From: Tetradesmus obliquus
Lineage: Eukaryota; Chlorophyta; Chlorophyceae; Sphaeropleales; Scenedesmaceae
Direction of reading: 5' to 3'
Assembly (NCBI GenBank): GCA_030272155.1
Contig: CP126204.1
Coordinates: forward strand, 3,649,501-3,713,500
DNA: 64,000 nucleotides
In this document: positions 1 to 64,000 of the stretch, one piece after another
Position numbering within the stretch: the first letter of the stretch is position 1
Layout: the number at the start of each line of letters is the position of its first letter
Program-made: the position numbers and the translations under genes
The notes under the pieces: model-generated
What the model was told of the DNA's origin: nothing
Seen by the model: only the letters and a program-made list of their open reading frames with translations
Database searches by the model: none

Positions 1-1318
1 ACCAAATGCAGCACACACCGTGCTCGTCTGCAGGTGGGTGACACTGTTGCTTTGTTCCATGTGGCATATATTTTGCGTGTTTTGAGGGTTTGCTGGGATT
101 AATATAGGGCTGCCTGCATTTACAGGCTAGCAGTATCCGCAGTAGCCTCCTGCCACCTGCCGAGCCTGTGTGATGGCTCCTTCACAGTGAACTTCAAGGG
201 CCGGTTACACATTGATGGCGGGCTGCTGAGCGTGGTGACGCCACCACCAAATGCAGCACACGCTGTGCTGGTCTGCAGGTGGGTGAGAGGTTGTGTTGCT
301 GCATGGGGGCTTGATTTTGCCTCACCTGGTTTCACTGAAGCCATACGCAGAATCAAGTGCTGCTGTGGCACCTGTGAACACACAGTGCTGGTGGCATCAT
401 CCCATTTCTTGGTTGAGTGGAGTAACGTAGCGTAACATAACATGATGTAACGCCTTGGCTGCTGCCATCGTTTTTCTCTATGAACTGCAGCATGCCCAGC
501 AAGCAGATCGCGTGGCGGCCGGCCTTCATCTTGCCATATCAAATCGATTTTCTTTCCTTTTTTTCACATTGATTTTCGCCCAACTAACGACTACGTGCCT
601 GTGCTGCTGCTGCTTTCCCACTCTCTTTCTATGCTGCAGCATGCCCAACAAGCAGATTGCGCAGCTGCCGGCATTTATCTTGCCATCACATTCTATTTTT
701 TGCCCAACTAACGACTGTGTGCCTGTGCTGCTGCTGCTTTCTCGTTTCTTTGTGCTGCAGCATGCCCAGCAAGCAGATTGCGCGGCTGCCGGCCTTCATC
801 GGCCGCCCGCGGCAGGCGGACATCTCCATCAGCCCTGACAATTTCCAGGACTGGCCTTTCAGCAGGACTGAGACCACAAGCCTGGCGCTGGAGCCGCCCA
901 GCCCTGCCTTCATCGACCACATGGTGAGGCCAGCCTGCTGCTGCTGCTGCTGCTGCTGCTGTTGAATACAGAAACTGCAGGGTTTGTCAACGGTTTATGG
1001 CGGCCGAAGCTTCACAGTAATACGTGTATTGCTGTTGCAGAACTAGCAACACTGTCATCATGACAATGATTGTTGACAAGCATTGCACCGTACTGCATTC
1101 TGAAATGTGTTCATTTGTTTGCCTTTCAGGTGGAGCGAGGCAGGGCTGATGCGTGGGCCTGGGCTGAGGCTGTGGGCTTTGCCCGCAACGGCATGCCACT
1201 GCTGCCGCCAGCCACCAAGCTGGAGCAGCTGCGGCAGCACGTGTTCAGCAGCAGCAGCAGCAGCAGCAGCAGCAAGTTGCAGGCAGACCTGCCACGTGTA
1301 GAGGTACAGTTTGCCTGA
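1..1318 (+). CDS. Patatin-like phospholipase/acyl hydrolase, 3' end (partial)
   Basis: The 5' part of the gene lies outside the window. Visible exons are about 126-278, 761-923 and 1130-1318; they join in phase and end at TGA. The first holds an HIDGG motif, which in patatin-fold lipases carries the catalytic Asp of the Ser-Asp dyad. The second has an ISPDNFQDWPFS stretch, a pattern I associate with algal patatin-like proteins, and the third a DAWAWAEA helix. The last exon contains a Ser run encoded by CAG/AGC repeats. The expected role is hydrolysis of acyl groups from glycerolipids. The nucleophile Ser (GxSxG) should be in the missing 5' exons, so the family call rests on the Asp motif and general resemblance. 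The introns contain extra copies of the exon edges (separate entry). Confidence 0.6.
486..690 (+). repeat. Two decayed copies of the 5' edge of patatin-like exon 2
   Basis: The true exon start at 761 (ctgcag then CATGCCCAGCAAGCAGAT) is preceded by two near copies at about 488-535 and 639-690. Each keeps its own CTGCAG acceptor and diverges after the ATTTATCTTGCC-like end. A comparable copy of the previous exon's 3' edge with its GTGGGTG donor sits at about 5-40, mirroring 248-285. Confidence 0.85.
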
Positions 1319-1421
1319 GCAGCAGTGCAACCGCCCGATGCTGTGTCGGCTGAAGTGCAGGAGCAGTGTGTGCAGGCTGCACAAGGCAATGCCAGCAGCT
1401 GTTGTGGCAATTATAGATCCT

Positions 1422-63100: not shown

Positions 63101-64000
63101 TTCTATGCCCACATCCTGCACTCCTTCTGCGTCAGGCACATGAACTGAATCAAACCTGCTGCTGCTCCTGCTGCTCCTGCTGCTGTTCCCTCCATCACAG
63201 TGTCGCTTGTCAACCTGGCAATGGCGCTGGGCATCGCCGTCGAGTTTTGTGCGCACATCCTGCACAGCTTCTGTGTGAGCCACATCTAACACACTTGCTG
63301 CTGCTGTTTGTCCCTCTGTTGTTTTGCAGTGTCGCTGGTCAACCTTGCAATGGCCTTAGGTATCGCCGTCGAGTTCTGTGCCCACATCCTGCACAGCTTC
63401 TGTGTGAGCCATGGCAGCAGGCAGGCGCGGGCCCGCGCAGCGCTGGTGAAGATGGGTGCGCCTGTGACCAGTGGCATCACGCTCACAAAGTTTGCGGGTG
63501 TGGTGGTGCTGGCGTTTGCACGCACACAGATCTTTGAGGTGAGAGTCATTTTGCTGTGTTTTGACATCTAGTCAAGCATCTATCAGTATGCAGTAGGCAT
63601 GCTGTCCAAGGATGGGTACATGGCAGGGCCACAAAGCTTTCAACCAAGTCACCAAGCTACCAAGAGGTGCCTTGTACATTGCTGAATTGCAGGTGTACTA
63701 CTTCCGGCTATACCTGGCCCTAGTGATCCTAGGAGCAGCCCATGGGCTGGTGCTACTGCCTGTGGTGCTGAGCCGCATTGGGCCCCCCAGCTGGTCTGAC
63801 CGCAGGGTTTTGGGAGGCTCCCAAAACCCCAGCAGCAGAGAGCTGGAGGCCTCTCGCAGCGGGGATGACCGGGCACTTGCTGGAGCTGCTGCTGCTGCAG
63901 CAGCAGAGGAGGCTGCTGTTGCGGCCGTGCTGGCAGAGGCGGCTGCGGCAGCTGCTGCTGCTACTTCTCAGCAGCAGCCGCAGCAGCTGTCCAGGGCTGA
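47949..64000 (+). CDS. NPC1: NPC1-type sterol transporter (3' end beyond window)
   Basis: About 25 exons. First: 47949-48028 (signal peptide [17 protein letters not shown]), 48655-49090, 49351-49485, 49714-49926, 50183-50452, 51027-51128, 51439-51513, 51707-51866, 52039-52362, about 52948-53226, 55169-55340, 55570-55754, 56204-56342, 56811-56992, 57610-58062; later ones run to 63694 onward. The Cys-rich lumenal N-domain has [25 protein letters not shown] and FLGGGA-like [10 protein letters not shown]. Then come the first membrane anchor ([18 protein letters not shown]), a middle lumenal domain, a sterol-sensing domain ([52 protein letters not shown]), a second Cys-rich lumenal domain ([27 protein letters not shown]) and the C-terminal RND block ([33 protein letters not shown]). 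It exports cholesterol-like sterols from late endosome or vacuole membranes. A Pro-rich insert follows the signal peptide. Confidence 0.95.
48667..48982 (+). repeat. PEPPAPS-type proline-rich repeat in NPC1
   Basis: A 21-base unit coding PEPPAPS is repeated about 13-14 times between the signal peptide and the [13 protein letters not shown] start of the conserved N-domain. The pattern resembles hydroxyproline-rich cell-wall glycoproteins of algae, and NPC1 homologues known to me have no such insert here. The antisense frame reads a Gly-rich repeat that is an artefact. Confidence 0.9.
50080..50820 (+). repeat. Copies around the NPC1 MNFMGGG exon
   Basis: A decayed 5'-part copy (ATGAACTTCATGGCCAAC...) lies at about 50088-50135. 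After the true exon (50183-50452), copies of its 3' part lie at about 50535-50705 (KDKR.P.VG..., [14 protein letters not shown]) and about 50775-50822, both followed by GTGAGTG donors. Confidence 0.85.
52550..52735 (+). repeat. Two copies of the NPC1 exon-9 3' edge
   Basis: The true edge [11 protein letters not shown] (to 52362) is repeated at about 52557-52592 and, decayed, about 52700-52728, each followed by a GTGAGT or GTGCGT donor. Confidence 0.85.
53227..54770 (+). repeat. Tandem array of an NPC1 exon tail, 8 extra copies
   Basis: The true exon tail at about 53140-53226 ([19 protein letters not shown]..) is followed by copies near 53313, 53509, 53683, 53896, 54066, 54281, 54449 and 54647. 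They alternate between two subtypes (GAGTGCCTTCGAGGC and GAGTGCGTTTGAAGC), giving a dimeric unit of about 365-385 bp repeated about four times. Units 53593-53977 and 53978-54362 are nearly identical, so expansion is recent. Long open frames read across it are out of phase with NPC1. Confidence 0.95.
54935..55110 (+). repeat. Two copies of the NPC1 [10 protein letters not shown] exon edge
   Basis: About 54940-54985 ([13 protein letters not shown]) and about 55050-55108 ([16 protein letters not shown]) precede the true exon at 55169, which begins [16 protein letters not shown] after cctgtgcag. Confidence 0.85.
56034..56203 (+). repeat. Copy of an NPC1 exon edge plus CTG/CCG tract
   Basis: The edge [20 protein letters not shown] occurs at about 56037-56100 and again as the true exon from 56204. 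Between them is a tract of about 27 CTG/CCG units ending at gacttcaaacctgcag. Confidence 0.9.
56424..57275 (+). repeat. Multiple copies around the NPC1 GPSITLAAS exon
   Basis: The 5' part of the true exon (56811-56992) is repeated at about 56540-56615 and 56675-56752 ([18 protein letters not shown] type), with a partial copy near 56424-56465. The 3' part recurs at about 57085-57122 (LLLDFILQ with donor) and 57187-57253 ([19 protein letters not shown]). Confidence 0.9.
57475..57560 (+). repeat. Copy of the NPC1 VTVFMALL exon edge
   Basis: Matches the true exon start at 57610 (gcag, GTCACTGTGTTCATGGCGCT...) over about 80 bases, including its TGCAG acceptor. Confidence 0.9.
59535..59735 (+). 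repeat. CTG-tract plus exon-edge duplications (NPC1 [10 protein letters not shown])
   Basis: The unit (CTG)n-catcag-GTGTCAGAAGCAGCCATGAG-... occurs at about 59505-59595 and 59605-59700 before the true exon at 59736. Here the CTG run and the exon edge were duplicated together. A copy of the 3' edge ([14 protein letters not shown] plus donor) lies at about 59925-59970. Confidence 0.9.
60130..60202 (+). repeat. CTG tract, ~23 units, at an NPC1 acceptor
   Basis: Uninterrupted CTG from about 60130 to 60199, ending CAG directly before the exon reading [13 protein letters not shown]. Decayed copies of this exon's 3' half follow at about 60480-60590 and 60640-60730. Confidence 0.95.
61303..61430 (+). 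repeat. Copy of the NPC1 [13 protein letters not shown] exon edge
   Basis: GCATTGCTGGCCTAAGCTC ... cagcgcgttttgcacctacc resembles the true exon from about 61479 and keeps a tgcag acceptor. It has an internal duplication of the ctgtgacagccagcgc stretch. Confidence 0.8.
61838..62700 (+). repeat. Copies around the NPC1 [15 protein letters not shown] exon
   Basis: The true exon (62016-62233) has an upstream 5'-edge copy at about 61850-61915 ([10 protein letters not shown]) and downstream 3'-part copies at about 62348-62472 ([12 protein letters not shown] ... YLSGIEVNA with donor) and about 62612-62700. Confidence 0.85.
62778..63290 (+). repeat. Four copies of the NPC1 [17 protein letters not shown] exon edge
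   Basis: Copies lie at about 62785-62868, 62926-63008, 63056-63143 and 63202-63285; the true exon starts at about 63330. Each copy encodes about 27 residues ([14 protein letters not shown] type), ends at GTGAGCCAC or a variant, and is separated from the next by a CTG-rich Leu-like spacer. Confidence 0.95.

What the first reader, a model, noticed from the sequence alone, without database searches (positions are those of the whole stretch)
1..64000. Introns filled with tandem copies of neighbouring exon edges, each with a splice site
Seen directly: in the patatin-like, HFDTD, TLDc, LRR, REV1 and NPC1 genes, introns contain one to eight partial copies of the flanking exon. A copy of a 5' exon edge keeps its CAG acceptor and a copy of a 3' edge keeps its GTGAG-type donor. 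Copies are in the same orientation and range from near identical to barely recognisable, so the process is continuing. This exceeds ordinary intron content. Inference: repeated short tandem duplications spanning exon/intron junctions create and lengthen introns, as in the proposed AGGT-duplication route to new introns. The copies may also act as decoy splice sites or allow alternative exon tails.
Basis: partly seen in the sequence, partly recalled or inferred. Interest (0 to 1): 0.88.

Follow-up and report, generated by a model that had tools for sequence, protein, structure and literature searches.

The report
Introns built from exon-edge copies
In this green alga many introns carry extra copies of the ends of the neighbouring exons, and the silent-site pattern of their differences suggests the copies came from diverged versions of the same gene rather than from the exon beside them.

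Summary
Exact exon models for three genes give 40 introns; 29 hold a copy of a flanking exon edge. 37 of 80 exon/own-intron pairs score, against 0 of 658 exon/other-intron pairs. Intron length rises by about 130-160 bp per copy. Random loci of the same genome show it too.

None of 61 copies touches an intron end, so the AGGT intron-birth route is not seen. Simple tandem duplication plus neutral decay fits poorly: the intron half of the unit is usually not recognisable, and copy/exon differences sit mostly in third codon positions (66%, bootstrap 59-74%, about 46% expected). Yet the copies now carry stop codons and frameshifts as neutral sequence would.

Best reading: the copies diverged as working exon edges in other haplotypes, were joined in tandem by unequal exchange between diverged homologues, then decayed. 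The species is Tetradesmus obliquus; a heterozygous diploid strain is reported.

The parts
49004..63998 (+). NPC1-like gene, 24 modelled exons, 23 introns; first exons upstream not modelled; model runs to the window end
   Evidence: spliced alignment to relatives' proteins, open frame throughout
22063..29587 (+). HFDTD + TLDc gene (single gene, 13 exons)
   Evidence: 706 of 706 aa identical to P0241, T. obliquus OEZ86_008708
12383..15852 (-). REV1 core, six exons used
   Evidence: spliced alignment to three REV1 relatives that agree on these exons
53311..54762 (+). NPC1 intron 9: nine copies of the 3' edge of exon 9 in a 385-bp dimer array (two sequence types), eight ending at TCAG
   Evidence: TRF array 53136-54717
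62684..63282 (+). NPC1 intron 22: five copies of the 5' edge of exon 23 (real exon starts 63330)
62363..62470 (+). NPC1 intron 22: copy of the 3' edge of exon 22, followed by gtgagtga
56423..56752 (+). NPC1 intron 12: three copies of the 5' edge of exon 13
57476..57553 (+). NPC1 intron 13: 95% copy of the 5' edge of exon 14; intron half not recognisable
59539..59689 (+). NPC1 intron 17: two copies of the 5' edge of exon 18 (intron half also copied)
59925..59967 (+). NPC1 intron 18: 98% copy of the 3' edge of exon 18
50542..50816 (+). NPC1 intron 4: two copies of the 3' edge of exon 4
22426..22704 (+). TLDc gene intron 1: three copies of the 5' edge of exon 2
23105..23161 (+). TLDc gene intron 2: copy of the 3' edge of exon 2
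23330..23389 (+). TLDc gene intron 2: copy of the 5' edge of exon 3
24784..24881 (+). TLDc gene intron 5: copy of the 5' edge of exon 6; 13 of 15 differences in third codon positions
25166..25344 (+). TLDc gene intron 6: two copies of the 3' edge of exon 6, intron half also copied
28819..28959 (+). TLDc gene intron 12: copy of the last 142 bp of exon 12, one frameshifting gap, 12 of 15 substitutions in third positions
29220..29271 (+). TLDc gene intron 12: copy of the 5' edge of exon 13
13296..13421 (-). REV1: copy of the 3' edge of exon 13542-13730; 13 of 15 differences in third positions
12816..12891 (-). REV1: copy of the 5' edge of exon 12383-12640; 8 of 8 differences in third positions
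15438..15548 (-). REV1: copy of the 3' edge of exon 15668-15852

Best explanation
Introns of Tetradesmus obliquus are lengthened by tandem units that span an exon/intron junction. Shown: most recognisable copies are an exon edge running to its splice site, in the same orientation; each is associated with about 130-160 bp of extra intron; and they now carry stops and frameshifts like unconstrained sequence. Inferred: most copies are not made from the exon beside them. They are the same exon edge taken from a diverged homologous chromosome (another haplotype or hybridising lineage), joined in tandem by unequal, largely non-homologous exchange in which one break lies in the exon and the other in the intron. 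Only joins that leave one intact splice edge survive. On average copy and resident exon had apparently already diverged at roughly 16% of third codon positions, under coding constraint, when the copy became intronic. Later local tandem amplification of whole units (exon plus intron half) makes the larger arrays.
For: 29 of 40 introns, 0 of 658 control pairs; length grows with copy number; random loci agree. Nearest copies (33 edges) differ from the exon at 6.2%, 5.8% and 23.6% of positions 1, 2, 3; 180 synonymous against 95 non-synonymous, while 27% synonymous is expected of random change. Third fraction 0.66 (0.59-0.74) against 0.46 expected for a neutral copy beside a constrained exon; two-phase estimate 0.197 constrained and 0.039 neutral; the 16% follows if about 0.035 of the former is real-exon change after capture (my arithmetic). 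Copies keep coding-like GC3, 0.79 against 0.76 in the exon. Changes unique to copies are themselves third-biased (30, 26, 66 in 38 copies) and in third positions about as many per lineage (1.7) as those unique to the exon (5, 0, 24; 1.4 per edge). Intron half at z<2 in 24 of 32. Now unconstrained: 4 nonsense against 3.7 expected, 7 of 9 indels shift the frame. NPC1 intron 9 holds two coding-like versions besides the exon, and a search of this genome with exon 9 finds no other locus. A diploid T. obliquus with extensive heterozygosity is reported (passages of PMC12636532); proteins of two other T. obliquus gene sets differ by 9 of 706 and 10 of 708 aa.
Against: The source haplotypes were not seen: no DNA of a second haplotype or strain was available. 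The present protein divergence (1.3-1.4%) would by my ratio mean only about 6-7% third-position difference, less than half of what the average copy needs. Up to six versions at one edge (NPC1 intron 22) need several source lineages. Polarised amino-acid differences (NPC1 and TLDc gene) are almost all in the copies (56 copy-derived, 1 exon-derived, 8 ambiguous), more one-sided than symmetrical haplotype divergence predicts. In a few copies with few third differences (NPC1 introns 13 and 18, TLDc gene intron 9) the intron half should still be readable and is not. 26 of 32 intron-half z values are above zero, so faint similarity remains on average, which old plain duplication would also leave. 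Recent copy-copy pairs are not clearly free of third bias. The random-loci signal is weaker: third fraction 0.57, best-frame synonymous fraction 0.47 against 0.41 in permutations.
Confidence: 0.45

Rival explanations
1. Plain tandem duplication of the adjacent exon/intron junction within one lineage, followed by neutral decay of the intronic copy.
For: Same orientation, adjacency, shared inner ends inside arrays, and intron halves copied along in several arrays (z>3 in 6 of 32: TLDc gene introns 1, 6; NPC1 8, 12, 17, 22). 26 of 32 intron-half z values above zero. Stops and frameshifts at neutral levels.
Against: Third-position fraction 0.66 against 0.46 expected; changes unique to copies are third-biased too; intron half at z<2 in 24 of 32 nearest copies; where the exon part is >=0.90 identical (13 copies, 2 of them with z>3) the intron half averages 0.58, the nulls lying at 0.51-0.58.
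Confidence: 0.25
2. The copies are, or until recently were, used in place: alternative exon edges, or a reserve that returns to the exon by repeat contraction or gene conversion, so selection keeps their coding sequence.
For: Coding-type divergence of copies from exon and from each other; splice dinucleotides kept in 47 of 49.
Against: Nonsense changes and frameshifts at neutral frequency; by eye, inner ends lack donor or acceptor in most copies; internal AG|GT joints not enriched, 6 against 6.7 in 30 copies. Selection through rare conversion would need very large effective population size (my reasoning, not computed).
Confidence: 0.15
3. False duplication: the assembly of a heterozygous diploid placed pieces of both haplotypes in tandem.
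For: It would give silent differences and unmatched introns; an earlier DOE0152z assembly was almost twice the size of another strain's (PMC5552973, whole text).
Against: More than two versions at one edge, arrays of 5 and 9 copies, copies with stops and frameshifts, nearest spacings of 98-266 bp, in 29 of 40 introns and, at score >=30, in 13 of 19 random loci with kept exons.
Confidence: 0.08
4. Intron creation by AGGT tandem duplication inside exons.
For: AGGT-type tandem genomic duplication is an established route elsewhere (passages of PMC3443670).
Against: None of 61 copies abuts an intron end; internal joints not enriched.
Confidence: 0.03

Closest known systems
Intron gain by tandem genomic duplication (AGGT model; e.g. 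the potato RdRp case, PMC4974935, search listing only; review PMC3443670, passages)
   Same: short direct duplications touching splice sites change intron content
   Different: here existing introns are lengthened; copies carry their own splice edge in mid-intron and do not abut intron ends
Tandem exon duplication / mutually exclusive exons (recalled)
   Same: coding-like copies of exon sequence in a neighbouring intron
   Different: only one edge of the exon is copied; mostly no second splice site; some frames broken
Nuclear copies of mitochondrial genes (recalled, as an analogy)
   Same: a decaying copy whose differences are mostly silent because source and resident diverged while functional
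   Different: nuclear, local, same locus
Minisatellite expansion (recalled)
   Same: arrays of repeated units, some of 100-250 bp
   Different: units are anchored on splice junctions and many edges have a single recognisable copy

Membership tests
AGGT tandem-duplication introns | copy of the downstream exon start directly follows the donor, or copy of the upstream exon end directly precedes the acceptor | tested here: not met
   smallest distances 79 and 155 bp among 61 copies
AGGT tandem-duplication introns | AG|GT in both copies at the joint | tested here: not met
   6 joints in 30 copies against 6.7 expected
Simple tandem duplication of the junction | exon and intron parts of the unit similarly preserved | tested here: not met
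   6 of 32 nearest copies with z>3 for the intron part, 24 with z<2; 26 of 32 above zero; met in those 6, not in general
Simple tandem duplication of the junction | direct orientation and close spacing | tested here: met
   104 direct against 5 inverted pairs in 20 random loci, median spacing 139 bp
Mutually exclusive or alternative exons | intact frame | tested here: not met
   nonsense at neutral expectation, 7 of 9 indels frameshifting
Mutually exclusive or alternative exons | use in transcripts | not testable with these tools
   no RNA reads held
Copies captured from diverged haplotypes | mostly silent differences from the resident exon | tested here: met
Copies captured from diverged haplotypes | copy matches another haplotype's exon edge | not testable with these tools

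The most novel reading that the evidence does not exclude
Exon edges are the only well-matched islands between diverged homologues of this alga. Exchange between them is therefore often unequal and leaves foreign exon edges in introns, where they seed further unequal exchange. Introns become archives of past alleles, and archived edges may be returned to the live exon by contraction, so that they evolve partly as coding sequence.
Probability: 0.2. Interest if true: 0.85.

Novelty: new variant of a known kind. Interest (0 to 1): 0.66.

Why it matters
How introns get longer is poorly known at the level of single events. Here 29 of 40 tested introns show such events at many stages of decay, and intron length follows their number. 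If the copies are captured alleles, introns record which past lineages contributed to a hybrid or highly heterozygous genome, and the record can be read and dated by silent sites. It also warns gene finders: the copies are splice-bounded, coding-like and easily called as exons (several were).

Tried and rejected
A self-trained gene finder was too permissive (it chained long parts of a strand into single genes), so exact models were rebuilt from relatives' proteins; the crude finder was used only for the random loci. A paralogous source: the NPC1 exon 9 query finds only its own locus; the TLDc protein finds its own locus, a fragment elsewhere in this window, and TLDc-family hits of 38-63% identity on contigs C9 and C10. 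NPC1 as a whole and REV1 were not searched for paralogues. Equal sizes of exon and intron halves of the unit looked tempting but are not correlated (Spearman 0.13, p 0.47). A paper search for the species plus introns and tandem repeats gave 4 papers, 3 listed; passages of PMC5966456 give a mean intron length of 462 bp for T. obliquus, the longest of the five species in its table; two genome papers hold no occurrence of 'intron' (term searches of the main text). Searches for the phenomenon itself listed no paper that describes it by title or abstract start; I did not read those papers further, except passages of PMC3443670. The library lacks most subscription journals, so this does not show that it is unpublished. 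The paper on the phased diploid genome (Biondi et al. 2024) was seen only as cited in PMC12636532.
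Full report
WHAT THE WINDOW IS. The window is on contig C14 of a 104.66-Mb genome in 17 contigs. The HFDTD/TLDc gene encodes a protein identical over 706 aa to Tetradesmus obliquus OEZ86_008708. A table in PMC12571836 (passages) lists a T. obliquus assembly of 104.70 Mb in 17 contigs and another of 100.30 Mb in 17 contigs; that these are the two haplotypes of one strain is my inference. PMC12636532 (passages) cites Biondi et al. 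2024 for a diploid T. obliquus with extensive heterozygosity.

EXACT EXONS. NPC1 was modelled with a composite of relatives' proteins: 24 exons, GT-AG introns, no stop in 1443 codons. The HFDTD/TLDc gene has 13 exons. For REV1 only six core exons, on which three reference proteins agree, were used. Together 40 introns (23 + 12 + 5).

THE OBSERVATION. I scored each intron against its two own exons and against the other exons of its gene. 37 of 80 own pairs reach the threshold and 0 of 658 others do; 29 of 40 introns have a hit, and 67 copies are listed. The 28 introns with copies of >=30 columns have a median of 484 bp, the other 12 of 242 bp; length rises by 158 bp per copy, or 128 bp without the 1944-bp intron. 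Recognisable copies cover 22% of intron bases. In 20 random loci, 104 local direct pairs against 5 inverted were found; density varies, three of the 20 having no direct pair and four only one. Among 80 predicted exons there, 27 have a match of score >=30 in a 400-bp flank; the control at that score is 40 of 1600, and at score >=40 the figures are 28 of 160 flanks against 0 of 1600. The exons there come from a crude gene finder. Spacings peak at 100-140 bp with a second group at 200-280 bp in both window and random loci.

ANATOMY. Of 61 copies, 49 start or stop at the junction, with AG (23 of 23) or GT (24 of 26) kept. Inside the exon they stop sharply at arbitrary places; by eye most lack splice signals there and a few have one, and copies of one array share that inner end. 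For 32 nearest copies that reach the junction I compared the intron stretch that a tandem unit should also contain: 24 have z<2, 6 have z>3, and 26 are above zero; for 13 copies with exon identity >=0.90 the mean identity is 0.58. In nine of ten copies inspected more closely the best local flank score does not exceed the maximum of 100 shuffles; the tenth, NPC1 intron 11, exceeds it because of CTG repeats.

HOW THE COPIES DIFFER. In the nearest copies of 33 edges (4 of the 37 edges dropped: under 35 aligned columns) differences by codon position are 48, 45, 182 (rates 0.062, 0.058, 0.236); 180 are synonymous and 95 not. A neutral copy beside an exon free only at silent sites gives a third-position fraction of 0.46; observed 0.662, bootstrap over copies 0.591-0.738; each gene alone exceeds 0.46 (0.60, 0.70, 0.84). 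The random loci give rates 0.068, 0.048, 0.153, fraction 0.57; a frame-free test gives z 4.6 there and 7.9 in the window; a best-frame test finds 19 of 74 pairs at p<=0.05 there and 19 of 41 in the window. Extreme cases: one type of NPC1 intron 9 copy differs from the exon in 10 third positions and 0-1 others. Where two or more copies exist, changes unique to copies are 30, 26, 66 (38 copies, 17 edges) and unique to the exon 5, 0, 24. Nevertheless 4 nonsense changes among 95 non-synonymous match the 3.7 expected of neutral change and 7 of 9 indels shift the frame. So the copies look as if they evolved as coding sequence for most of their separate history and as debris later; the two-phase estimate is 0.197 and 0.039 per third site, with the constrained ratio taken.

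MECHANISM. The simplest history with these two phases is that copy and exon separated as alleles in different lineages, both working, and were later joined on one chromosome. One unequal exchange, with a break in the exon of one homologue and in the intron of the other, leaves exactly an exon edge with its splice site in mid-intron, sharp at the inner end and unmatched in the intron. Larger arrays with copied intron halves are later local amplification. The junction-spanning layout and the divergence pattern are shown; the allelic source and the exchange are inferred. Against it stand the modest present protein divergence (9 of 706, 10 of 708; that P0010 is T. obliquus is read from its label Sobl393), the need for several sources, the faint remaining similarity of intron halves, and the one-sided amino-acid changes (56 copy-derived, 1 exon-derived, 8 ambiguous in 564 codons of NPC1 and the TLDc gene).

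KNOWN KINDS. Tandem genomic duplication is an accepted route of intron gain (PMC3443670, passages), but its defining joints are not met here. I therefore file the finding as a new variant of duplication-driven intron evolution, and do not call it AGGT intron gain.

Noticed in passing
8853-9035: Fragment of the last TLDc exon about 20 kb upstream of the gene's last exon, same strand, frame broken by gaps, differences by codon position 4, 7, 14: exon pieces also land away from their own gene.
   Followed up: partly
45300-45761: Perfect inverted repeat, two arms of 106 bp about 250 bp apart; possibly a small transposon.
   Followed up: no
33315-33763: 28-bp minisatellite, 16 copies at 99%.
   Followed up: no
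31221-31836: Coding-like tandem array (about 156-180 bp units) that reads as repeated peptide.
   Followed up: no
1-64000: CTG/CAG triplet runs are frequent; exact period-1-to-3 runs mask 4.4% of the window.
   Followed up: no
window and L001-L020: Repeat spacings are two-peaked, about 100-140 and 200-280 bp, with a dip at 160-200 bp; cause unknown.
   Followed up: partly
G000:C14:674610-675109: Two partial Helicase_C matches side by side on the minus strand that overlap in the profile, one with an internal TGA: possibly the same phenomenon in another gene.
   Followed up: no
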